The position numbers and the translations under genes are program-made. Positions 4,332-60,990 of a stretch of DNA of 64,000 bases are shown here, piece by piece (within the stretch, counting starts at the first letter, position 1; the number at the start of each line of letters is the position of its first letter). Under the pieces are notes generated by a model, which searched no databases, was not told where the DNA came from, and worked only from the letters and a program-made list of their open reading frames with translations. The DNA comes from Nautilus pompilius (taxonomy: Eukaryota > Mollusca > Cephalopoda > Nautilida > Nautilidae), in NCBI GenBank assembly GCA_018389105.1, contig JACATO010000691.1, positions 248,001-312,000 of the forward strand, read 5' to 3'.

Positions 4332-4373
<42 letters not shown>

Positions 4374-4737
4374 CGCGCGCGGCACACACACCACACAAAC
4401 ACACTCTCGCTCGCTCTCACACACACACACAAACACGTCTCGCTCTCTCTCTCTCACACACACACCGCGCTCTCACCACACACACACACCTCCGCTCCCA
4501 CACACACACACACACACACAAACACGCGCGCGCACACACACACAAAAACACTCTCGCGCGCACCAACACACACCAACTGACACACGCTCTCGCGCGCGCG
4601 CACACCACACCACACACACACAAAAACACGCTCTCTCGCACACACACAACACACCACACAAAACACGCTCGCGCTCACACACACACACAAACACGCGCGC
4701 GCGCTCGCACACACACACACCGCGCTCGCACACACAC

Positions 4738-4774
<37 letters not shown>

Positions 4775-5881
4775 AACCCGCGCTCGCACACACACAAAAC
4801 ACGCGCGCGCGCGCACACACACAAAAACACGCGCGCGCTCACACACACACACAAACACGCGCGCGCGCTCGCGCACACACAAAAACACGCGCGCTCTCAC
4901 ACACACACACGCGCGCGCACCACAACACACACCCACACCTCGCGCGCGCGCGCGCACACACACACACAAACACGCGCGCGCGCACACCACAAACACAAAA
5001 CACACGCCGCGGCGCGCGCTCACACACACACAAAACACGTCGCGCGCGCGCGCGCGCACACACACACACACGCGCGCGCACCACACACCACACACACACG
5101 AACACGCGCGCGCGCACACACACACACAAACACAGCGCGCGTCGGCACACACACACACAAACCACCGGCGCGCACACACACACACCAAACACTCCGCGCG
5201 CACACACACACCACAAACACGCTCGCGCTCACACACAAACACAAACACACGCTCGCTCACACACACACACAAAAACACGCTCGCTCTCACACACAAACAC
5301 AAACACACGCGCGCTCCGCACACACACACACAAACACGCGCGCTCTCGCTCGCCCACACCACACCCACTCGCTCGCACAACACAACACCACACACGAAAC
5401 CTCTCTCGCTCACACACACACACAAAACCTCTCGCTCACACACACACACAAACACTCTCTCTCGCACACACACACACAAACACGCGCTCGCACACCACAC
5501 ACACACACTCGCTCGCTCTCGTCACACACCACCACACACACTCTCTCGCTCGCTCACACACACACACACAAACACGCGCGCTCGCGCACACACACACCAC
5601 ACACCACACAAACACACTCTCGCTCGCTCACACACACACACACACACAACCACTCGCTCTCTCTCACACACACCACACACACACAAACACTCTCTCCACA
5701 CACACACACACAAAACACACTCTCTCTCACACACACACAAACACACACCTCTCTCACACACCAAAAACATCCACACTTCTCTCTCTCTCTCTCACACCAC
5801 ACACACACACACACAAACACTCTCTCTCTCACACACACAAACACACACACACACTCTCTCTCTCCACACACACACACAACA

Positions 5882-5919
<38 letters not shown>

Positions 5920-16839: not shown

Positions 16840-19800
16840 TCAATATTTTTGGTAATTCATGTAGCACTCATCATTGATGTACACTGATTGTTCCACACAA
16901 TCTTGTTGTTGTGAATGTAGTGGTGGGTTCTCATAATCAAAATCTTCATCATTAGATACCTTACATTTACTTGCACTCATATCTATGTAGTCCTGGTCAT
17001 AGGTTGCACTGTCTTTGTCCATGGATCCCATTGGCATATAAAGAGAGTCTGAACCATCGGATCTATCCACTGGTTTTACTTGGTCCATCTGTTTTGGAGC
17101 AGATGGTGCAATCGGTAAGCTCTTGATTTCTTCATCTTCAAGCAGCACAGTTGTCTGCTTTGGTTTTAAAGGCAACTTCACTGGCTTCTTTTGATAAAAT
17201 GGCTGGTTTACATAGGACTCATCAACCATTGGCTTTAGAGTAAAAAAAGAGAGAGAGAAAAGGTTTAAGGCAAACTGAGAAGTTAAACAATTGAGGTACA
17301 ATTTCATTTACTGGCTTGCAGATGTTCAGAGAGCAGCTCTCAAAAAATCGTATAATCGTGCAGCAACCTTTGAGAAAGCAGATTCTGGTCCAGTTTAATA
17401 AAATTTTTTTTTTTTTTTTCCTTGTAAAAGGAAACATCTATCACCATCAGTTTGTTTAAAGATTTATGCATTTCATCATTTTTTTAAAGATACTGTAATT
17501 GAATTCTTTCAAGTCATGCCTTAAATAGGTCCTAGTCAGTGAAGATCATTTGGAACATGGCAACTGCAGCCAATTAGTAGTAAAAGGAATTTAAAAAAAA
17601 AAAAACAAAATTAAATGAGGAATGCCACAAATTCAAAAAAAAAAAAGAAAGAGTATTAAACTTTAAAACTTTAAACCCCTAATACACTCCTTAGAAATAG
17701 ATTTTTAATTATAATTTAGAGGTGGCAAAGGGATAAAGTAATGTAGACATGCTAGAAAATATTTATGTAAAGACAATAACCATGCACAGGTAAACAAGGA
17801 TGGAATTTTCTGCAGATTTGGGGCCAAATCGAATCTTTTTGAGATTGATTTAAATCTGAAAAAAGAATGTTAGTGGGAAGGGATTGTTTTCCTTTATTGT
17901 GTATTTTCTACAGGAAAAACAACCCTGGTAAGGAAATGTAGAGATGTGGTTATCTATTAAGAAGCGTTGCCAATCTTACTTCACACACAGATGCAGCATT
18001 TCTGACTTTGGCAGCAAAAAACATACTAGAACTCTTTGTATGTTAGATGAGGAAGGAAACTCATGTGGCTGGAGGATGAAGAAGAGTGAGAAGAAATCAT
18101 GCAAGGAAGGTACATCAAACCAAGATATTCCTCTGAGGAAATCAAACTGGAGCCTTGGACCCTTGCAGTGCAGTCTAGTGGTCTACCATCATGTCACCTG
18201 AGGCTGGGTTTACATAGTTGTAAATTGTAATTTTTACATAAAAATCATGTTCACTGTTATAAAATATTTCCAGCCTAAATGTCCCTTTTGCCAATTACTG
18301 CAGACAAGAGTGTAAATTTTTCCTCATTGTGATGTAACAAGCTATTTCTAATATGTCTAAACATCTGGTGGTATTGTTGTTCCTTATTCTGCAGCCTCCA
18401 GACCCCTAGACTATCATGGTTATGGTTTTCTCCACATTTTACATTCTCATTCCTGACTGGTTGGTTTGGGTAAGAGCAAAGACAACTTAAGAAAGGTATT
18501 AAACTTCTGACATATCCAAAATTCAAGATGATTTAAATCATTCTGTAATTATCCCACTAAGTGGCAAACTGGTGATTTTCAAAAGTAACAGAAAAGCTTT
18601 AAGTACCATCTGCTTAATGAAGATACTAGGAAGGGGAAACAATATAATGGTGCAAGAAAGACTGAATACCAAGCATGTTAGAGAGAATGATAAGAGCAAG
18701 AAATGCCAGAGGTTTGCAAAGCTTTGACTAGCATGCATTTAGTTCTTGAGATCCAGTTACTGCAATTACCATTTGGTTAAGGGTTTAGAAATGATGCAGC
18801 CATTTTACAAGAATAGTGTTAAAAAATGTTGGATCTTGCATACACTCTTTCTACTTTAATATTGCATATTGTGTGAAGATATGTTGCCTGCAAGCTTCAA
18901 GATTTTTTTTTTCTTTTATAAAGGAATTATTGCCATTATTACTTCAATTTTAGTTTTAAATTCTACCTTTGCACATAAGACCAGGAGGTATTTAAGGACA
19001 TGGATAAAGTTTCAGCTATAAAACAATTTGTCTGGCAAGATAGGCCTGGCCTATTTATGTAAATACTTTCACAGTAGTATTAATTCTTGAGATGAAAGGG
19101 CATTCAAGAAAGAGAAATACATTTCCTGCCCCTTATTTCCTTCCAATAATCTTAGCTAGCAAGAAACCAGGAACTGATCTTTAACAATTTACTTGGAAAT
19201 CCTTGAATGTTTTTTTTCTAGTTGGTGTCTCAGTATATCTTGCATCATTATCAGGCACTGCTATGGATTTTTGATGAAAATCAGTGTTCTGATAGTTCTC
19301 ACTTTCCCTGAATTCCAAACATGGATTCTGGTTAGGCGGGTCACTTAGATTGCACATCTGGAGCAATAAATCAAAAAGAAAAAAATTTTATCTTCTCTTT
19401 CATATATATATATATATACACACACACACCACACACACACACTAGGAATGTTCAAATGAAACCCGTCCAGATTACAGCATTATTATTTCAGCCAGGTTTC
19501 ATTTGAACATCCTTGTTGTGTGTGCAATCCGATTTAATTGTTAGTCATCAGTTTACATAATACAGGTAAAAAGAGATGCCAATGAAGTAATGTTCTGCCA
19601 CCAAAATGATAAATGTATTTACATGATTTGGTAAATTTTACTCATCCATATGTTAAAGTTTTTTTCATTTTCTATTATAGCTGGTGTACACCAACATTTA
19701 CAAGGTAGATATCCCTAGTAAAGAACTGTATAGTGCTGCAGTTTCCACTATGAAGCATTGCCAATAATGTCCCACATGAGGCCCAATACCACTAACTATG

Positions 19801-22800
19801 GCAGAGAATTTCTTTTCTAGTAACTATCATTTTAAAAATTTGTTTAAATTCTTTTAAGTTTCTTTATTTTAAGCATTAATGACTTTTTACTTTTTCTCCT
19901 GTACTATTTACACTTAATCAAAATCACATTCACTAAATGAGTCTTCCAGTGTGTGTTTCCTATCACCATAATTTTAACACAGATTACTATTATTTAGAGT
20001 TCAATTGGGTAAATTATCAAGGCCACATAAGGGATTATTATTAGATATATGAATACTTTTTGGAGACATTCATTTTGCCTGTTTATGCTCTTCAGAAGAA
20101 ATAGTAGTAAAAGTAGCGAAGTCTGTCCCTATTATACAAATATACCATATAGTAGATGTAAATTATACAACTCTGACACACAAAAAGTGGTTTTCTTTAC
20201 TGGAGAGCTACAGCATGCACCATACATGATTGGAAAGTATCAAAAGCTTAGAATTACTGGAACTCTCTCTCAAAATTAATAATGCAGAAAACTTGTTACA
20301 GAACATGATTTTATTTAGAAAGTAATTTAAGTTTGTTTATTAATGTGTTCCTCGAAGCCAAAAGTAGTGGAAAACTAAGGAGGACTGTGCCGCCACCTTC
20401 TGCAGTGCACAGATACTTGTCCGAGTTTTCTATCTTTGTTGGATATGAAGCTTAAAGCTCCACTAAAAGAAGTCTTTCTCTTTTTAATATCTATTTTCAC
20501 TGATCTGTTCTTTATTTACTGTCTTATCTCTGCTCAATGAACAAGCAACAGCAGCTGAAATGGTTCCCACCTAGCCACAAATAGCAACTGCAGAGTTTTA
20601 CCCACAATGATCTGCAAAAAAAAAAAAAAACCGAAAAAAGATGACATGGCAAGTAATAACAGCCTCTCCTGAAGCTGGACCATGCTGATTGTTTATCTGG
20701 TTTAGTGGAACACTAGAGTCCTCCCACAAACACCCCCTGGCCCCTGGTACACAAGTCTTTTTTTTTCTTTCAGCTAAATAAAACTTTGAACCCTGACCCC
20801 TGTGATGTCTAACAAAAAGCTATAGTTGCTCCATCCATCTCAAAAGCAAACAGGCTTGGTAAAACAAGCAGGTGGTTCCCACATCAGAGATTTATTGAAT
20901 GAACCCCTTTTGCAATTATTAGGAATAATTTTGACACCTGACAAAGATTTTGATTATTTTATATTTTTTCCCTTAGTTGATGCCAGAGCAATCTAATATT
21001 TTCCTGTTTATAAAAACAAGCTATGTCCAAACATCTGGTGGCATTGATATTCCTTGTTCTGCAGCCTCCAGATCCCTGGGTTGTCATGGTCGAGGCTTTC
21101 TCCACATCTGTCATTCTAATCCCTGACTGGTTAGTTTGGGTAAGAGCAAAGACAACTTAACAGAGGGTATTAAGCTACTTCTGACATAGCCAAAGCTCAA
21201 GGGAGACTGACTTGTTTTGTAGCTATCCTTCTTAGACAATTTCCTTGCCAGTAAACAAGTTTACTGTACCTCCATAGCATGGTTTCTTTTCATAGGGGAT
21301 CTATCTCTGAAGTCAGAAGTGCCAAGCCCCATGCAGCATAGATTTGACAATGCTTCCCAGCAAGCAACCTTCACTGTGTTCCCTTATTAGGTTTGACTCT
21401 CTTGTGGACATTGGTGTATGTCAACATAAAATTCAAAAACCTTTTTCTTCATAAGTAAATATATTAAACTTAATTTTATACGTAGGACTTGTGTAATCAG
21501 ATTCTCCATTACTTGACCCCGAGCCTTCATCACCTTGACCTTAAACTAAAATGTTATAAGGAAAATACATTTGTGTTGTGCATGATTTGAAATTGGTGGA
21601 AAACCTACCAATCTAAGTGAAAACACCAAGGCAACCATATGATTCCTGTTTTAGGCAAAGAAAAACCCTATCAGAAGTGCCTTTCGTTTGGCAAGCAGAA
21701 AAAAAGCAGAGTTTCCAGAAGAGCATAGAAAGTTTGCTCCTCTTTCCATCTTTAGTCTTCTAATGCAATTATCTTGGTGGTGATTAGTTCCCTTGATTGG
21801 TTTGTGTTACAAGAAAAAAAAAAAATACAAGAGGAAATTGTACTAGGGTGTTGAATGAAAACTGGTTTGATACTATTACAGGGGTGCTACTGTAACCTAG
21901 CTTCATTTCAATGACTGTAGTAAAAGTCACTGCATGCACATCCATATTGGATGCTCAGATACATTTACACAGAACACTTACACATCATGGAGAATACGAT
22001 TAGCATCATAATTAAAAACAACAACAACATGGCATCTCAGTATAGCATAAAGAACAAAAGATCCATATCAGATGGTTTAGCAAAAATAAATAAACCAAAT
22101 TTTGAACTGCATTATCTGATAGATCAATCACTTCCTATTACCCCCCCAAACACTCACATATTCAACCTCTGTGAATAATAAGAGTGTTACTATCATTACT
22201 CTTGCATATTGATGATTGTACACTTTTCTGCAGGAACATTCCTTAAGTGGCTATGAAATGAAGCATGCATTATTGCAAATGGATGCATTTTAAATATAGT
22301 TTCCAAGTTATTTTCATCTTGTATGATTAAACTGTTCTCTTATTGAGGTTTCTGTTGTTTTTTGTTTTTTTTTGCTTTTGTGAAAACAATTATATTTCCA
22401 AAATTTAAATAGTGAGTATTTAATGTGTCCTTGATCTACTCTCCCATCACTGTTGAGCTACCGTTTCATTTGCTCATCCAAAGAGTTCCTTGCTAAATCT
22501 CTTTTTATAAGTCTTATCTAGTTTATTGCCCCTAAACAGCCCTTGTACTTTTCACGCTGTCAGACTAGGTGAGATTTAAGACAAAATACTGGCATGATGT
22601 CAGTGGCAATCATCGGAAAGCTGCACTATATGGCAACCTTTGGTGACCACCATTTGTCTTCATACGGATGACTTTGTAACAACTATCAGCCCATTTCCAA
22701 ACAAAGCTGTTTTGATAATTGCTGATTTACAAAAATAAAAACATTATGTAAGAATATTAGCATTATGTGAAAATTAAAATACTATACAAGAATATTATTT

Positions 22801-25800
22801 CATGTATGAATACAACTGTTATTCAGTGCAAACATTGTTATAGAAAAATACTTTTGTTATGTAGGAATGCAACGTTATACATCAATACAAGTATTAGATA
22901 AAGATGCAATGGTCCATTTGATGCAATATTGCATATTTAGTTTCATGAGGCAAAAAAGTTTGTACTGTAAATAAAACTCAGATGAAAAACAATAAATTAC
23001 TTTCCTAACAAGAAAAAAGTTATCTTATGTCCCATAATTCTTTGAGTTTAAAATTTAAAATCAAAACAGATTCTATGTAAATGAATATTAACTCAGCATT
23101 TGTAAATCTACCAGTATGTTAATTTGTTTGGAAACAAAGTTCTGAGTATCTCTAAACTTTTTCTACCACTATGATTGATATCAGCTTTAAAAACAAGAGA
23201 AGAGTTGTTTTTTTTATACTTACTGAATTTTCGCCATTCAGAGAACTTCTTATCCTTTTCTTATAAATGACAACTATTACTGCTGCAATGATTATCAACA
23301 CCAATAAGCTACACACTGAAGCGATAATAGCCTTGTTTTGAGTAGATAACTCTGGTCTATAATTGTGTGCGGTGTTCAAAGATGTTGAATTGCACACCTC
23401 ACTGGATATGCACATGATGCAATTTAAAGTACAGTTGGAACAGGAGTCTTTACAGAGCGTGGGAAAGCAGTCACTGCATAAATGATTACTACTACCAACA
23501 AATTTTGCCATACTTGCTTGACAAATTTTAGTTTTACAACAGATGTTCTCATTGGAAGCATTTTTGCAGTTTGTCGTAGTCTGAAAGTTAAAAAAAAAAA
23601 AATGAAAGAAAGATTCCAATTAACTCTGGGCATTTCTTACTACACATGGTGTGCCTTATGGAAAAATTGCACTCATAAATTAATTTAGTAGCTTTTTAAT
23701 TTAAAACATTTTCTTGAATTTTATTATACACTGAATACATCAGTACATACACTTACAAACACATACATCAGTACATACACTTACATACACATACATCAAT
23801 ACATACACATGAACACACACATACATCAGTACATACACTTACAAACACATAATACATCAGTACATACACTTACATACACATACATCAATACATACACTTA
23901 CATACACATGAACACACACATACATCAGTACATACACTTACATACACATGAACACACACATACATCAGTACATACACTTACATACACATGAACACACACA
24001 TACATCAGTACATACACATGAACATGCACATACATCAATACATACTTACATACACATGAACACACACACATCAGTATGCATACATCAATACATATACTTA
24101 CATACACATGAACACACACATACATCAGTAGATACATACTTATACATCAAGATTATGACCTTCTCTTGTAAAAAGAAAAACCTTTGTGCATTTTATTTAA
24201 CAACAGACTTTAATAAAATATTTGCTTTTTAAAAATAATATGTAATAATAAATTTAGCACCAGTTTATCCAAAAAATATCTGAAAAAAAAAATTTTTTTT
24301 TTAGTCAGTTTACAATAAAAATTAAAATCCTTCTCAGATTTGAAATAAGACAAATTAGCTAAGATTCCAGTGATATCAGAAAATGTATATTTTTTTTTGT
24401 TTATATAACGAGTGTAATAAATTACTGGTAACAGTTAATAGTATTAATCAATTTAAGAATTTTATCTCCAGTCATTTCTCTTCCCTGGAGGCCACTTGTA
24501 TTTGCTTCCTTCTAACTACTAAACAAAACTTACTAATGCTTTGTGGAAGCAAAATTAAAGAAAACTAGTGCTTACCCTGTCATACGAGAGTACCTACTTT
24601 CACTATAACACTTGATTGCTTTTTTTTTTTTTTAATTTGAAGGATAAATTTTAAGTTTTTTTTTTTTATAACCCCACACAGAAATAAAACAAACAATATG
24701 GATGTAATGTAGCTGAGTAACTTAATAATATAACATAAGGTTGAACTCAAATGCTACCCCAGTGGTGCATCCTTCAAAAAAGATTCTCAACATCTTAAGT
24801 GGAAAAGTGAAAGCAGAGATAAACAGAATGGAAATAGAAGGTGTTACAGAAAAAGACAGAAGAGCTGAGTCAATTGTAGTGATAGAGAAACCAAATGTTA
24901 AGGTTAAGATATGATAAGACCCAAGAAGACCTAAGCAAGTTTGTGAAATAAGATTACTAGTGATTAAAAATAGAAGTAGCAGATAATTTTTAAAAAATCT
25001 AAATTCTTTTAGTGAGTTGGATGCATTTTCAGATTTTCAGGATTCTATCAAATAAAGATGTCTAAGGAGCATTCAGAGCATTCGTGTGACTCATAAACTA
25101 TCATGGAAAGTTTATATCAAACTCGTCATCCATTACATTTAAAAGGCCAAGGAAGTTATCTCAGTGCATCATCTGAAGAACTAGAGGCACACATTCTGCA
25201 AGAGAACCATTCAGTTGCATATACATTAAATCAGAATGGCATTATGCTCAAATAAAGAGAGAGATGACAGTAATAGTATTTGTAACTATAAAGTTTCATC
25301 AGTATATATATAGGAAACAAGCACACATAGAAACAGATCACAAGCCACTCGAGAGGTTATTTAGAAAATCTATTATCAACAAAGAATAAGAGAGACTAAA
25401 ACTACTTGTCACAGCATCAGTATTTCCTAATTAAATGTATAGTTGAGACTATGATCAGCATCATATGCTTTTACCTTATGTAAATTATAGCCTCATTTAA
25501 ATATTTAATTAGGAGTTACTGATGCTGTTTTTGCACCTATAACAACTAGCCTAAGTCTCTCCTACAGCAAATGATGCTAAAGTACAGAAGTAAAATTTAC
25601 AGGATGTCTATAAATTTGTAGAAAAAACTCATATTTTAGACAAAATTAGCTGAACATATGAACAGATTTCCATTGACAGGTTGAAAGAATTTAAAATGGA
25701 GACTCAGTTTTGGCGGAGTACAAAAGCTGAAAGTAGTAGTTTAGCAGGGTTGACCAGAGACATCAAAAGACATGGTTAAGAATCTTAAACTACAGTGGAA

Positions 25801-27682
25801 CTTCAAAGATCAAATTAACTCTGTAGATGCACTTGTACAGAAAGGCAAAAGTATAATAGTTCCTGAGTCTATGAGCAAGCAAAGGCTAAGAAAGATCCAC
25901 AGTAGGCACCTAGAAACGCAAAGTTGGCCAAACGGCGCTTCTCGAGCTCTCCAGAGACAAGTGTGCATAAGTATGCAATGAGGTGTCAGTGCAGAATTTG
26001 TTGAACAAACACGGACAAGAACCTTTGAAATCTTATGAAGTGCTGAAGTGGTAGGAACTGACATTTAAATTTAACAAAAGAATTATTTCATTATTACTCA
26101 GAGTTTGTTTGTTTTTTTTTTTTTTGAAGTGTCAGAACTGATAGACAAGATGCAAAACCGTAATAACTAATGATGCTCAAATAAATCCAGTGTTGTGGCT
26201 GATGGAAACCAAGAGAGAGATGTCATGTACAGTCATTCACTTAACCAGTCATCCAGTGGGAGTGTCATCAGGGAAATCACAAGGTTCATGAACTAAGAAA
26301 CCCTTTTGTGAACTTTCTGACAGAGCTGAATGTGTTCTCCTGTGAGAAGAACCCCTTGAAGACAAGGTAGTGGATAACAAGAAAAAGGGGATGTGAGTCA
26401 CAACTGTAACCATGAATTGTCTCTCTGTGCCTGCCACTACATTGTGCTGTATACACACTCACTCACTCAGCTGTGACACATCACATGACAACATTTCCAG
26501 CTGGAGCGTGAGATATTTCTTTTTTTGTCTATATCAAGGAAAAAAATAAATGAATTAAGACGGACTAAGCAAATATCCATTTAAGTAATCATACACAATG
26601 TACTCCGCTAACGACTCCAGGTGGCGCTTCTCGCCCTTCGCTTTAGTCGGCCGGGCAAGGGAGACGATCCTTGGTTTGGGGGGGGGATATTTAAATCACT
26701 GCCAATTGAAATTAGAGCAGACCTCACTTTTTCCGCTTCTCGTTTTTAAACTTATTAATTACCAAAACTATTATTATTTCTTTAGGGGAGGGGAGGGGCC
26801 ATTCGTGTAGAGACCTTCAGGGCCACTTCCTTGATCAGCCTACCAAACTGTCAAGAATCTCTGGGCGATGGCGCGTCTGTAAGCCAGCAGCCAGCTTCCT
26901 GCCCAGACGAGTAGAAAGCCACTCTAAATTTATAACAAGTCGTATTATTATTAATTATTATTAATTATTATTAATTATTATTAATTAGTATTTTCTACAA
27001 AAAAAAAGGTCTGCGCAGAATAACATCCAAAGTGGAAATTCATTTCAAAATATCGGCAGTCCAGATAGTCGGGTACCTTCCGCGAGGTTTCCAAGCAACC
27101 ACCTTATTAATTCACCGAGTGGGCTAAGCTGGGATGGAGTCTGGGGAGCCAAAAACGGGCGGAAATGTCCTCGTAGGTTCGTGAGAAGAGCGGGCTCAAG
27201 ACTGGGTGAGGGAAGGACGGGAATACGTTGTAATGGCCGATAAAGCTGATCCTAAGACCAAAACATTTTGGGAAGGGTTAAATATGCTGTTCTCCCTCCT
27301 CCCCCCCTCCTCCCTCTCTCTACTCATCTGTACCAGCTCTGACAAGAGCTTGTTGTTGTTGTTGCTTATGAAAAGAAAACACCTTAGGAGTTCAGGTAAA
27401 ACCCGACCGAGGCAGCATCGCCCTCAATGGCGTCTGGCCGGGTCTTACTTGAACTTTCCCACGTAGATATAAGTCAGTAAACAACAACACAGGTACACCC
27501 CGAGGGTGGTGTGGCCCTTCCCCTCTGTAAGCTGACAGGGGTAAGGTTAATAATTCCGACGCCGCTGCTGAGGTGGGCAGAGGAGGAGGTGGGAGGCTGC
27601 TGTTCCTTACCTCGTCGCACTGATGATAACCCGGCCCCTCGAAGACAAGCAGAGCCAAAACCAGCAGGATGCCGAGCCCCAT
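16840..27682 (-). CDS. Type I transmembrane protein with Cys-rich ectodomain and a tail of phosphotyrosine docking motifs (328 aa, complete)
   Basis: Exons, in order of transcription: 27682-27611, 23580-23224, 19357-19193 and 17232-16840 (TAA at 16842-16840). All junctions are AG/GT and all introns are phase 0. Residues 1-18 or so form a signal peptide (MGLGILLVLALLVFEG). Residues 19-107 are a small ectodomain with 13 cysteines and NxS/T sites, resembling disulphide-rich receptor modules but not matched to a family. Residues 108-130 are one membrane span, followed by the stop-transfer KKRIR. The 198-residue tail has YMPM (Tyr263) and YIDM (Tyr280), both YxxM PI3-kinase p85 motifs. It also has YQN (165), YVN (205), YIN (317) and YMN (322), all Grb2-type YxN, plus YENP (298). 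No kinase, death or TIR domain is present. Inferred role: a receptor or adaptor phosphorylated by a partner tyrosine kinase. The exon model is strong; the function is inference. Confidence 0.82.
17985..18200 (-). repeat. tRNA-derived SINE, minus orientation, in intron 3 of the membrane-protein gene
   Basis: Same order of blocks as the copy at 13745, including the 'catgcaagg' body block and a tRNA-like head near 18170-18200. Confidence 0.45.
18337..18525 (-). repeat. Interspersed repeat, copy 1
   Basis: About 190 bp, clearly homologous to 21016-21201. Shared blocks include ACATCTGGTGG, CTGCAGCCTCCAGA and GGTAAGAGCAAAGACAACTT. Family not recognised; orientation is arbitrary. Confidence 0.75.
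19404..19442. repeat. (TA)n(CA)n microsatellite in intron 2 of the membrane-protein gene
   Basis: Run of TA then CA, about 45 bp upstream (transcript sense) of the acceptor at 19358 and directly abutting the hairpin element at 19444. Confidence 0.9.
19444..19514. repeat. Short palindromic hairpin element, copy B
   Basis: 71 bp. Left arm AGGAATGTTCAAATGAAACC pairs almost perfectly with right arm GGTTTCATTTGAACATCCTT. Intronic in the membrane-protein gene. Confidence 0.8.
19515..21015. other. Intron 2 of the membrane-protein gene, no recognised content
   Basis: AT-rich intronic DNA. No extra exon with compatible phase was found. Confidence 0.4.
21016..21201 (-). repeat. Interspersed repeat, copy 2
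   Basis: Homologous to 18337-18525 in the same orientation, with many substitutions, so both insertions look old. Confidence 0.75.
21844..21919. repeat. Probable decayed copy of the hairpin element
   Basis: Ends CTAGGGTGTTGAATGAAA and CTACAGTCATTGAAATGAAG (reverse complement) resemble the arms of copies A and B but carry several mismatches. Confidence 0.35.
21920..23223. other. Intron 2 of the membrane-protein gene, nothing recognised
   Basis: AT-rich intronic DNA without supported features. Confidence 0.4.
23735..24145. repeat. Minisatellite of TACATACACT-type units
   Basis: Irregular array built from CATACATCAGTA, CATACACTTACA and CATGAACACACA blocks, with a higher-order period of roughly 36-40 bp. 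It lies in intron 1 of the membrane-protein gene, about 150 bp upstream (transcript sense) of exon 2. Confidence 0.9.
24770..26060 (+). mobile_element. Broken Ty3/gypsy retroelement pol fossil
   Basis: Plus-strand fragments resemble, in order, the start of a gypsy reverse transcriptase (VKAEINRMEIEGV, then IVVIEKPN), its SGFYQIKMSKE region, an RNase H segment (ETDHKPLERLF near 25350) and the integrase zinc-binding region (IIVPESM near 25855, then KIHSRHLE). The domain order is the normal one for the family. It is heavily broken, with many breaks and no recognisable LTRs, so it looks old. A MITE at 25389-25562 is inserted within it, which dates the retroelement as older. It lies in intron 1 of the membrane-protein gene, antisense to it. 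Confidence 0.75.
25389..25562. mobile_element. MITE with long inverted repeats, copy 1 (inside the gypsy fossil)
   Basis: Ends AGAGAGACT... and ...AGTCTCTCC are inverted repeats that continue inward to CAGTATTTCCTAATTAAATG and its counterpart. TA duplications occur at 25387-25388 and 25563-25564. A relative lies at 36265-36444. Confidence 0.75.
26061..27600. other. 5' part of intron 1 of the membrane-protein gene, nothing firm
   Basis: Contains a short (TTATTATTAA)n run at 26945-26990 and a rise in GC towards the promoter. No exon seen. Confidence 0.4.
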
Positions 27683-28000
27683 GACTCCCGATTCTTCTGG
27701 CGAAAGATGTTCGACGTAAATGCAACTTCCTTTTCTTTTTTTTTTCTCTCCCCCCCCAACCAGATGGATCTTACATTTTCTGTCATCAGAAGCCGCCCGT
27801 CGTCGGCTCCAACGCGGAAGTACAAGTTGAGAGAACTTCGACTGCCAATCGGACGTAGGCGATCATTGGCTGCGCCGATTAAAGGCCGGGTTGGTTACCA
27901 CGTTGCTAACGAAGCACGTGCGGTTTGGCGCCCCCTCCCCCTCCTCCCCCGGCGATTACTAACTGGGTCCGCATAAACGATCATCCCCCCCCCCCCACGA
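27683..28000 (-). promoter_or_regulatory. Probable promoter and 5' UTR region of the membrane-protein gene
   Basis: GC-rich and CpG-containing stretch directly upstream of the ATG at 27682, unlike the AT-rich surroundings. It contains CACGTG at 27916-27921 and CCAAT-like sites. No TATA box was identified with confidence. Confidence 0.5.
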
Positions 28001-32003: not shown

Positions 32004-53226
<21,223 letters not shown>

Positions 53227-53767: not shown

Positions 53768-53880
53768 GAGAGAGAGAGATGGGGAGAGGGAGAGGGAGAT
53801 ACAGACAGACAGAGAGAGATGGGTGGAGAGAGAGAGAGAGACAGAACAGACAGAGAGGGAGGGGGAGAGAGAGAGAGGGG

Positions 53881-53914
<34 letters not shown>

Positions 53915-53954
53915 TAGACATAGAGAGATGGGGGAGAGGGAGGGAGAGTGAGAG

Positions 53955-53985
<31 letters not shown>

Positions 53986-54187
53986 TGGGGAGAGGAGGGA
54001 GAGAGAGAGAGACAGACAGAGAGGGGGGAGGGAGAGGAGAGAGAGGAGAGATGGGGAGAGGAGGGAAGAAAGAGAGAGAGAGACAGACGAGAGAGGGGGG
54101 AGGGAGGAGAGGAGAGAGAGACAGACAGACAGAGATGGGGAGAGGAAGGGAGAGAGGGAGAGAGACAGACAGAGAGAGAGGGGGGAG

Positions 54188-54225
<38 letters not shown>

Positions 54226-54267
54226 GATGGGGAGGAGGAAGAGAGAGGGGAGAGAGAAAGAGAGACC
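53768..54267. repeat. 500-bp GA/GACA microsatellite array
   Basis: GAGAGA blocks alternate with GACAGACAGA and GATGGGGAGAGG segments, giving a loose higher-order repeat of about 60-100 bp. It lies between the two divergent promoters. Long Arg/Glu open frames across it are artefacts. Confidence 0.95.
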
Positions 54268-57544: not shown

Positions 57545-60179
57545 CCCAGACACACAAGGAGAGTGTTCAGGGAGTAGATAGTCACGTGACAAATTTATTG
57601 AGACGGTCCCAGGCACACAAGGAGAGTGTTCAGGGAGTAGTAGCCACGTGACAAATTTATTGAGACGGTCCCAGGCACACAAAAGAGAGTGTTCAGGAGT
57701 AGATAGTCACGTGACAAATTTATTGAGACGGTCCCAGGCACACAAAGAGAGTGTTCAGGGAGTAGATAGTCACGTGACAAATTTATTGAGACGGTCCCAG
57801 GCACACAAAGAGAGTGTTCAGGGAGTAGATAGTCACGTGACAAATTTATTGAGACGGTCCCAGGCACACAAAGAGAGTGTTCAGGGAGTAGATAGTCACG
57901 TGACAAAATTTATTGAGACGGTCCCAGGCACACAAGGAGAGTGTTCAGAGAGTAGATAGTCACGTGACAAATTTATTGAGACGGTCCAGGCACACAAGGA
58001 GAGTGTTCAGAGAGTAGATAGTCACGTGACAAATTTATTGAGACGGTCCCAGGGCACACAAGGAGAGTGTTCAAGAGAGTAGATAGTCACGTGACAAATT
58101 TATTGAGACGGTCCCAGGCACACAAGGAGAGTGTTCAGGGAGTAGATAGTCACGTGACAAATTTATTGAGACGGTCCCAGGCACACAAGGAAAGTGTTCA
58201 GGGAGTAGATAGTCGCGTGACAAATTTATTGAGACGGTCCCAGGCACACAAGGAGAGTGTTCAGGGAGTAGTAGATAGCCACGTGACAAATTTATTGAGA
58301 CGGTCCCAGGCACACAAAGAGAGTGTTCAGGGAGTAGATAGCCACGTGACAAATTTATTGAGACGGTCCCAGGCACACAAGGAGAGTGTTCAGGGAGTAG
58401 ATAGCCACGTGACAAATTTATTGAGACGGTCCCAGGCACACAAGGAGAGTGTTCAGGGAGTAGATAGTCACGTGACAAATTTATTGAGACGGTCCCAGGC
58501 ACACAAGGAGAGTGTTCAGGGAGTAGATAGTCACGTGACAAATTTATTGAGACGGTCCCAGGCACACAAAGAGAGTGTTCAGGGAGTAGATAGCCACGTG
58601 ACAAATTTATTGAGACGGTCCCAGGCACACAAAGAGAGTGTTCAGGGAGTAGATAGTCACGTGACAAATTTATTGAGACGGTCCCAGGCACACAAGGAGA
58701 GTGTTCAGAGAGTAGATAGTCACGTGACAAATTTATTGAGACGGTCCCAGGCACACAAGGAGAGTGTTCAGAGAGTAGATAGTCACTTGACAAATTTATT
58801 GAGACGGTCCCAGGCACACAAAGAGAGTGTTCAGGGAGTAGATAGTCACTTGACAAATTTATTGAGACGGTCCCAGGCACACAAAGAGAGTGTTCAGGGA
58901 GTAGATAGTCACGTGACAAATTTATTGAGACGGTCCCAGGCACACAAGGAGAGTGTTCAGGGAGTAGATAGCCACGTGACAAATTTATTGAGACGGTCCC
59001 AGGCACACAAGGAGAGTGTTCAGGGAGTAGATAGCCACGTGACAAATTTATGAGATGGTCCCAGGCACACAAGGAGAGTGTTCAGGGAGTAGATAGCCAC
59101 GTGACAAATTTATTGAGACGGTCCTAGGCGCACAGGGAAAGTGTTCAGGAGTAGATAGTCACGTGACAAATTTATTGAGACGGTCCCAGGCGCACAAGGA
59201 GAGTGATCAGGGAGTAGATAGCCATGTGACAAATTTATTGAGACGGTCCCAGGCACACAAGGAGAGTGTTCAGGGAGTAGATAGCCACGTGACATTTATT
59301 GAGACGGTCCCAGGCACACAAAGAGAGTGTTCAGGGAGTAGATAGCCACGTGACAAATTTATTGAGACGGTCCCAGGCGCACAAGGAAAGTGTTCAGGGA
59401 GTAGATAGTCACGTGACAAATTTATTGAGACGGTCCCAGGCACACAAAGAGAGTGTTCAGGGAGTAGATAGCCACGTGACAAATTTATTGAGACGGTCCC
59501 AGGCACACAAGGAGAGTGTTCATGGAGTAGATAGCCACGTGACAAATTTATTGAGACGGTCCCAGGCACACAAGGAGAGTGTTCATGGAGTAGATAGCCA
59601 CGTGACAAATTTATTGAGACGGTCCCAGGCACACAAGGAGAGTGTTCATGGAGTAGATAGTCACGTGACAAATTTATTGAGACGGTCCCAGGCACACAAG
59701 GAGAGTGATCAGGGAGTAGATAGCCACGTGACAAATTTATTGAGACGGTCCCAGGCACACAAGGAGAGTGTTCAGGGAGTAGATAGCCATGTGACAAATT
59801 TATTGAGACGGTCCCAGGCACACAAAGAGAGTGTTCAGGGAGTAGATAGTCACGTGACAAATTTATTGAGACGGTCCCAGGCACACAAGGAGAGTGTTCA
59901 GGGAGTAGATAGCCACGTGACAAATTTATTGAGACGGTCCCAGGCACACAAAGAGAGTGTTCAGGGAGTAGATAGCCACGTGACAAATTTATTGAGACGG
60001 TCCCAGGCACACAAAGAGAGTGTTCAGGGAGTAGATAGCCACGTGACAAATTTATTGAGACAGTCCCATGCACACAAGGAAAGTGTTCAGGGAGTAGATA
60101 GTCACGTGACAAATTTATTGAGACGGTCCCAGGCGCACAAGGAGAGTGTTCAGGGAGTAGATAGTCATGTGACACATTT
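57545..60179. repeat. 63-bp minisatellite, about 42 copies, most with a CACGTG E-box
   Basis: Each unit contains GAGAGTGTTCAGGGAGTAGA, then TAGTCACGTGACAAATTTAT, then TGAGACGGTCCCAGGCACAC. The unit is 63 bp, so it is a multiple of three and stays open in one frame on each strand (21-residue repeats), giving artefactual frames above 300 codons. Copies are highly similar. Common variants are agtCACGTGac versus agcCACGTGac; a few units have CACTTG, CATGTG or CGCGTG. The first ten units have small indels; the rest are nearly uniform. Presumed intronic. Confidence 0.98.
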
Positions 60180-60990
60180 AAGATGCTCTAGCGTTTTTTT
60201 GGTTGCAATAGGTTGTGGAATTTGCTTCAAAAAGATGTTGGTTAGGCCCAGGGGTTGAAACTCTAATATTTTTGCTGTTGGTACAGTTTTTTTTTTTTTT
60301 TCTAAAACAGGTGACATATATATTATATTGTATCTATAATGCAGTTATTTACAAGGTTAGCCCAATTCTCACTCATTTGGGTGGTGGTGTCATTGTGCTT
60401 AAAGCAAAATATTGCAGCTATGATTTGGATTTTTTACAATTTCCATCTTTTAAATTTTGTAAGTTATTGATTAAAGCATCAAAATTCTACTTTTTATAGT
60501 ACTTTATAATATACTTGCATACTCTATAAAGCTGACGATTTTAATTTAATACAAATTAGAAAAGATGCTGGAGTGATGTTGAAACTTTACAACATTCCCA
60601 TTGTGGATTTCAACTCCAGTCATGGCTCCACTAATAAGGTTACTTATTGTTGGAGTTTTATAGTCAGTTCACTCAACATATATAATACCAAGATTGTGCA
60701 TGAATTGACTGAAAGGAATCATAATTTCAATTCATTATAGTCACCCTTTGCTTTGAGAATCTTGGGGTATCTTCTGAAGCTTCAGAAAAATACTTGTACA
60801 TTGTAGTATAGGACTTCCAGACATCTTTCATGGCTTGAAACTGGAGGCCTATTCACACCTTCCTACTTCCAAAACCTGAAGTTCTAATGTCTTTGCCACA
60901 TTCTGAAAGCCCTCTCTGATTTTTGTAAGAAGCTTGATGAGTGCTATATGATTTGTTCATAAATATTTTTAAATTATCTATTCCAGAAAC
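60180..60990. other. Presumed intron of the right-end gene, nothing recognised
   Basis: AT-rich, no repeat or exon supported. Confidence 0.4.

What the first reader, a model, noticed from the sequence alone, without database searches (positions are those of the whole stretch)
16840..27682. Small single-pass receptor with an IRS/CD28-like phosphotyrosine tail
Four phase-0 exons give a 328-aa protein: signal peptide, a compact 13-Cys ectodomain of under 90 residues, one membrane span, and a 198-residue tail with two YxxM motifs (YMPM, YIDM), four YxN motifs (YQN, YVN, YIN, YMN) and YENP. YxxM and YxN are the established docking sites for PI3-kinase p85 and Grb2. The protein has no kinase domain, so it would act as a ligand-binding transmembrane adaptor, as CD28, LAT or IRS proteins do in vertebrates. 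I know of no described invertebrate family with this architecture. It may be a lineage-specific signalling receptor.
Basis: partly seen in the sequence, partly recalled or inferred. Interest (0 to 1): 0.85.

Follow-up and report, generated by a model that had tools for sequence, protein, structure and literature searches.

The report
Nautilus receptor with PI3K/Grb2-type tail
A cephalopod genome, probably that of the chambered nautilus, holds a believable gene for a small cell-surface receptor whose inner tail is full of tyrosine docking sites like those of vertebrate immune co-receptors, while its outer part resembles no family we could search; whether it really signals is untested.

Summary
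Four phase-0 exons on the minus strand (27611-27682, 23224-23580, 19193-19357, 16843-17232, stop 16840-16842) join to a 328-aa type I membrane protein: signal peptide, 89-residue ectodomain with 13 Cys, one membrane span, and a 198-residue tail with two YxxM (YMPM, YIDM) and five YxN sites (YQN, YVN, YEN of YENP, YIN, YMN). Exon 1 lies in a CpG-rich, GC-rich island. The motif load exceeds composition shuffles (joint 8 of 200,000), though the motifs were chosen after seeing the tail. No second copy was detected. The genome is a cephalopod's, most likely Nautilus pompilius. No Pfam or PDB relative was found; a TNF-receptor repeat profile from the same genome does not match; single-sequence AlphaFold gave no usable ectodomain. 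The genome has many SH2 pieces and a p85-type gene. Best reading: a kinase-less receptor whose phosphorylated tail recruits p85 and Grb2-type adaptors. It works like CD28 or MUC1 tails but is not a member of those families. Conservation, expression, ligand, kinase and binding are untested, and no mollusc proteomes could be searched, so 'no described family' cannot be confirmed.

The parts
27611..27682 (-). exon 1: start codon, signal peptide, first ectodomain Cys (MGLGILLVLALLVFEGPGYHQCDE)
   Evidence: donor GAG|GTAAGG; CpG-rich island
23224..23580 (-). exon 2: 12 of 13 ectodomain Cys, sequons at N31, N73 and N88, whole membrane span, start of tail
23332..23580 (-). exon-2 part of the ectodomain (residues 25-107)
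   Evidence: coordinates; folded alone without a usable model
19193..19357 (-). exon 3: tail with YQN (Y165)
16840..17232 (-). exon 4 and stop codon: tail with YVNQ (Y205), PKQTT, YMPM (Y263), YIDM (Y280), YENP (Y298), YIND (Y316), YMNY (Y322)
27500..27999 (.). GC-rich, CpG-rich island over exon 1, likely promoter (inferred)
   Evidence: GC 0.57, CpG o/e 0.90

Best explanation
It is a real protein-coding gene for a small type I membrane receptor without a kinase. Inferred mechanism: the disulphide-rich ectodomain meets a ligand or partner (the odd Cys number would allow a covalent dimer); clustering brings tyrosine kinases of the Src, Syk/Shark or receptor kind to the tail; phosphorylated YMPM and YIDM then recruit the SH2 domains of PI3-kinase p85, and phosphorylated YVNQ, YIND, YMNY, YQNT and YENP recruit Grb2-type adaptors, so one small receptor starts both PI3K/Akt and Ras/MAPK signals. 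Shown: open exons with splice borders, topology by sequence, motif content, and presence of p85-type and SH2 sequences in the genome. Inferred: expression, ligand binding, phosphorylation, recruitment, outcome.
For: Gene model; motif enrichment over shuffles; several motif tyrosines have acidic residues just before them (DESYVNQ, DQDYIDM, DEDFDYENP; sequence); two p85 inter-SH2 pieces over Pfam's cut-off and an SH2 piece near them on contig C2042; 43 SH2 matches, exon by exon, from 62 candidates scored. CD28's YMNM holds a PI3K (YxxM) and a GRB2/GADS (YxNx) site (PMC11599192, passages seen); MUC1's YHPM is listed as interacting with PIK3R1 and its YTNP with GRB2 (PMC5039420, passages seen).
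Against: No transcript, homologue, phosphosite or binding data. Short motifs occur by chance and were picked after the fact. Three of the gene's splice sites score low on a generic matrix. The ectodomain has no recognised fold. The codon-usage test was uninformative, and worst for exon 2. A Grb2 gene was not securely identified: the candidate SH2 piece scored slightly better to SHP2 (41.4 bits) than to Grb2 (36.9 bits).
Confidence: 0.6

Rival explanations
1. A divergent TNF-receptor-type protein (BCMA/Wengen-like small ectodomain) that signals through TRAFs; the tyrosine motifs are secondary.
For: Cys spacing C44-x14-C59-x2-C62-x4-C67 recalls the start of a TNFR repeat (recalled pattern); the tail has PKQTT, which fits the recalled PxQxT TRAF motif. 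The genome has other loci with a TNFR repeat, two of them Wengen-like by eye.
Against: No Pfam TNFR match; a profile of 11 TNFR repeats from the same genome scores the ectodomain at -2.9 bits, reached by 182 of 300 shuffles with Cys positions kept and 241 of 300 full shuffles (no held-out positive control was run). PxQxT appears in 10,053 of 200,000 tail shuffles.
Confidence: 0.12
2. A non-catalytic subunit (DAP10/CD3-like), endocytic or adhesion protein whose ectodomain mainly pairs with another receptor rather than binding a ligand; the YxxM/YxN tail gives the complex its signal.
For: Small ectodomain, odd Cys number, tail with both p85-type and Grb2-type sites.
Against: The membrane span between K107 and K131 has no charged residue, which such subunits usually have (sequence; the rule is recalled).
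Confidence: 0.18
3. A decayed or mis-joined remnant, for example a receptor tyrosine kinase that lost its kinase exons, or exons that are not joined in life.
For: No homologue and no transcript; long introns; three low-scoring splice sites; codon score uninformative.
Against: Four open exons of one phase with splice borders and a promoter-like island at the first. No convincing relative of the protein elsewhere in the genome: five other matches at E 0.004 to 2.45, judged chance; the best runs through a stop codon. A rerun on those loci alone, without composition correction, gave them E 6e-7 to 8e-5, values inflated by the tiny database.
Confidence: 0.1

Closest known systems
CD28/ICOS/CTLA4 family (jawed vertebrates)
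   Same: single-pass, no kinase, tail with YxxM and YxN sites
   Different: no Ig domain match; tail much longer, with seven such sites; the paper reports no convincing CD28-family homologue in agnathans or in the non-vertebrate deuterostomes it searched (PMC11599192, passages seen)
MUC1 cytoplasmic tail
   Same: membrane protein with a p85-type YHPM and a Grb2-type YTNP (PMC5039420, passages seen)
   Different: no mucin or SEA domain match
IRS proteins
   Same: YMPM-type p85 sites (recalled for IRS-1; the paper search listed nothing and one search was seen as a listing only) and several YxN sites
   Different: IRS are cytosolic with PH and PTB domains (recalled); neither matched
LAT/TRAP transmembrane adaptors
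   Same: kinase-less, many docking tyrosines
   Different: those have a very short outer part (recalled); this has 89 residues with 13 Cys, and no juxtamembrane CxxC
Grindelwald/Wengen/BCMA small TNF receptors
   Same: small Cys-rich ectodomain, one span
   Different: TNFR repeat profile does not match

Membership tests
CD28 family | Ig V-type ectodomain | tested here: not met
   no Pfam match at E up to 10 in the 88-residue ectodomain given
CD28 family | tail site for PI3K (YxxM) and GRB2/GADS (YxN) | tested here: met
   as separate sites; no single YMNM
IRS family | PH and PTB domains, cytosolic | tested here: not met
   no such match; signal peptide and membrane span instead
LAT/TRAP adaptors | very short extracellular part and juxtamembrane palmitoylation Cys | tested here: not met
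   89-residue ectodomain; tail Cys only at 145, 156, 288, 310, 321
TNF receptor superfamily | TNFR Cys-rich repeat | tested here: not met
TNF receptor superfamily | TRAF-binding motif or death domain in tail | tested here: inconclusive
   PKQTT present, but PxQxT arises in 5% of shuffles; no death domain match
Ly6/uPAR and TGF-beta-receptor three-finger domain | three-finger Cys pattern ending CC-x4-CN (recalled) | tested here: not met
   no Pfam match; CC-x4-C occurs near the N-terminus and the last pair is C-x5-CN. A divergent three-finger fold cannot be excluded without a structure.
Receptor tyrosine kinases | kinase domain | tested here: not met
   none in the 328-aa protein; introns were not scanned for kinase exons
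SH2-docking receptor (functional class) | phosphorylation-dependent p85/Grb2 binding | not testable with these tools
   needs experiment

The most novel reading that the evidence does not exclude
An invertebrate co-stimulatory-type receptor: a cephalopod- or mollusc-specific, kinase-less surface receptor that independently evolved a CD28/CD19-like tail coupling an unknown ligand to PI3K and Ras together, with an ectodomain fold not described before.
Probability: 0.3. Interest if true: 0.7.

Novelty: new variant of a known kind. Interest (0 to 1): 0.5.

Why it matters
Dual PI3K/Grb2 docking tails on kinase-less receptors are known best from vertebrate immune cells. A clear example in a cephalopod would show that this solution arose, or was kept, outside vertebrates, and would give a handle on how blood cells or other tissues of these animals receive signals. 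The claim can be tested directly with RNA-seq and phosphopeptide binding.

Tried and rejected
Extra exons: scans for further phase-0/0 exons (48-449 nt, set thresholds) between the proposed ones found none; other phases and shorter exons were not scanned. Paralogues: the whole-genome protein search gave this gene's four exons below E 0.001; the next five (E 0.004 to 2.45) were judged chance. TNFR reading: not met. Structure: AlphaFold of exon 2 (mean pLDDT 52.4, confident only in the membrane helix) and of the exon-2 ectodomain alone (36.7, no residue at 50 or more) were too poor, so no fold search was run. Codon usage: uninformative. Polyadenylation signal: one ATTAAA 229 nt past the stop, at about the background rate. 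Relatives in viral contigs: three stretches fitted a peptide pattern, none a relative. Grb2 gene: candidate piece ambiguous between SHP2 and Grb2.

Paper searches: four aimed at an invertebrate receptor of this kind (20 of 103 listed; 1 of 1; 12 of 82; 8 of 508); among the titles listed I saw none on such a receptor, which is not proof that none exists. The others were for background (8 of 73; 4 of 4; 8 of 23; none; 8 of 37; 4 of 4). Listings only were seen, except passages of PMC8257504, PMC11599192 and PMC5039420.

Full report
What is there. The minus strand of 27682-16840 holds four exons joined at phase-0 borders; each intron begins GT and ends AG. Joined, they give 328 residues: a hydrophobic leader ending near residue 18 (by inspection; no signal-peptide program was run), an ectodomain of 89 residues (19-107) with 13 cysteines and three N-glycosylation sequons (N31, N73, N88), one strongly hydrophobic span starting about residue 108, and a 198-residue acidic tail (pI 4.7). 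The tail has 12 tyrosines; seven of them lie in YQNT (165), YVNQ (205), YMPM (263), YIDM (280), YENP (298), YIND (316) and YMNY (322).

Is it a gene? Of the four longest open frames of the window, with listed repeat stretches and low-complexity frames left out, three carry exons 1, 2 and 4. A scan of the whole window for phase-0/0 open exons with modest splice-site scores found 30 candidates; of the 8 with 50 or more codons, 4 belong to this gene, 2 to an adenosine deaminase exon and 2 to one other place. By splice score alone e2 ranks 14th and e3 26th of the 30. The thresholds were set after the proposed exons' own scores were known, which makes the test partly circular. Exon 1 sits in a stretch with GC 0.57 and CpG o/e 0.90, in a window whose median CpG o/e is 0.26, as expected of a promoter. 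A codon-usage score trained on 2,232 hemocyanin codons did not help: exon 1 scored above all but 0.8% of 474 random ORFs, exons 3 and 4 above 86% and 88%, exon 2 above only 28%; the five ADA control stretches, whose ends include some intron, stayed below the 95th percentile too. There is no transcript evidence.

Are the motifs more than chance? In 200,000 shuffles of the tail, two or more YxxM with five or more YxN came up 8 times; five or more YxN 63 times; two or more YxxM 15,057 times. The YxN load is therefore the surprising part. The choice of motifs was made after seeing the tail, so these numbers are optimistic.

Whose genome? The genome has 727.6 Mb in 2558 contigs. It holds 14 hemocyanin beta-sandwich matches from 15 candidates scored, seven on each of two contigs (a lower bound). 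The one unit searched (from L015) matches a full-length hemocyanin, 6r83, best in the PDB (640 bits for the matching unit, against 537 for the corresponding unit of the second entry, 3j32; that 6r83 is a squid protein and 3j32 a gastropod one is recalled). Seven units per subunit is recalled for Nautilus and octopus. The Nautilus pompilius assembly is reported as 730.58 Mb (PMC8257504, passages seen). The window is therefore most likely Nautilus pompilius; the species is inferred, not shown.

What is it related to? Nothing found. For the whole protein Pfam gave five weak matches, all below their cut-offs and all reaching over the membrane span (best E 0.0025); none for the ectodomain alone and one at E 3 for the tail; the PDB gave none. 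In the genome itself the only confident matches are the gene's own exons. A viral contig collection had none. No animal proteomes could be searched. The ectodomain was tested against a profile of 11 TNF-receptor repeats of the same genome and scored no better than shuffles. AlphaFold on single sequences gave no usable ectodomain.

How it most likely works. A kinase-less receptor with p85-type and Grb2-type sites is the working principle of CD28 (PMC11599192) and of the MUC1 tail (PMC5039420). The partners needed are at least partly there: two p85 inter-SH2 pieces and an SH2 piece on contig C2042 and 43 SH2 matches, among them pieces that look like Src, Syk/Shark and SHP2 by recall. A Grb2 gene was not pinned down, though Grb2 is expected in any bilaterian (recalled). 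Ligand, kinase, phosphorylation and binding are inference.

Verdict. Membership in the CD28, IRS, LAT or TNFR families fails on at least one defining feature tested for each. It is a new variant of a known kind, of moderate interest until relatives and transcripts are examined.

Noticed in passing
33183-50176, minus strand: Exons of an adenosine deaminase gene, the nearest gene recognised upstream of the receptor gene and in the same orientation: of ten hand-picked ORFs, five match Pfam A_deaminase, three of them above its cut-off.
   Followed up: partly
57545-60180: Tandem array of a 63-bp unit, about 42 copies, 95% matches; being 21 codons long it keeps long frames open on both strands.
   Followed up: no
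23398: A stronger-scoring donor inside exon 2 (5.2 against 0.8) would skip the membrane span and could give a non-membrane isoform in frame with exon 3.
   Followed up: no
18340-18490 and 21020-21160: Two similar stretches (CATCTGGTGG...CTGCAGCCTCCAGA...CCTGACTGGTT) in introns, seen by eye; probably a dispersed repeat.
   Followed up: no
4340-5882 and 53768-54265: Long CA-type and GA-type low-complexity tracts.
   Followed up: no
L023, L027: Two loci of the same genome whose open frame shows a single TNFR repeat followed by a membrane span, Wengen-like by eye.
   Followed up: no
L011-L016 (contigs C557 and C1362): Hemocyanin genes on two contigs, seven units detected on each; two genes or two haplotypes.
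   Followed up: partly
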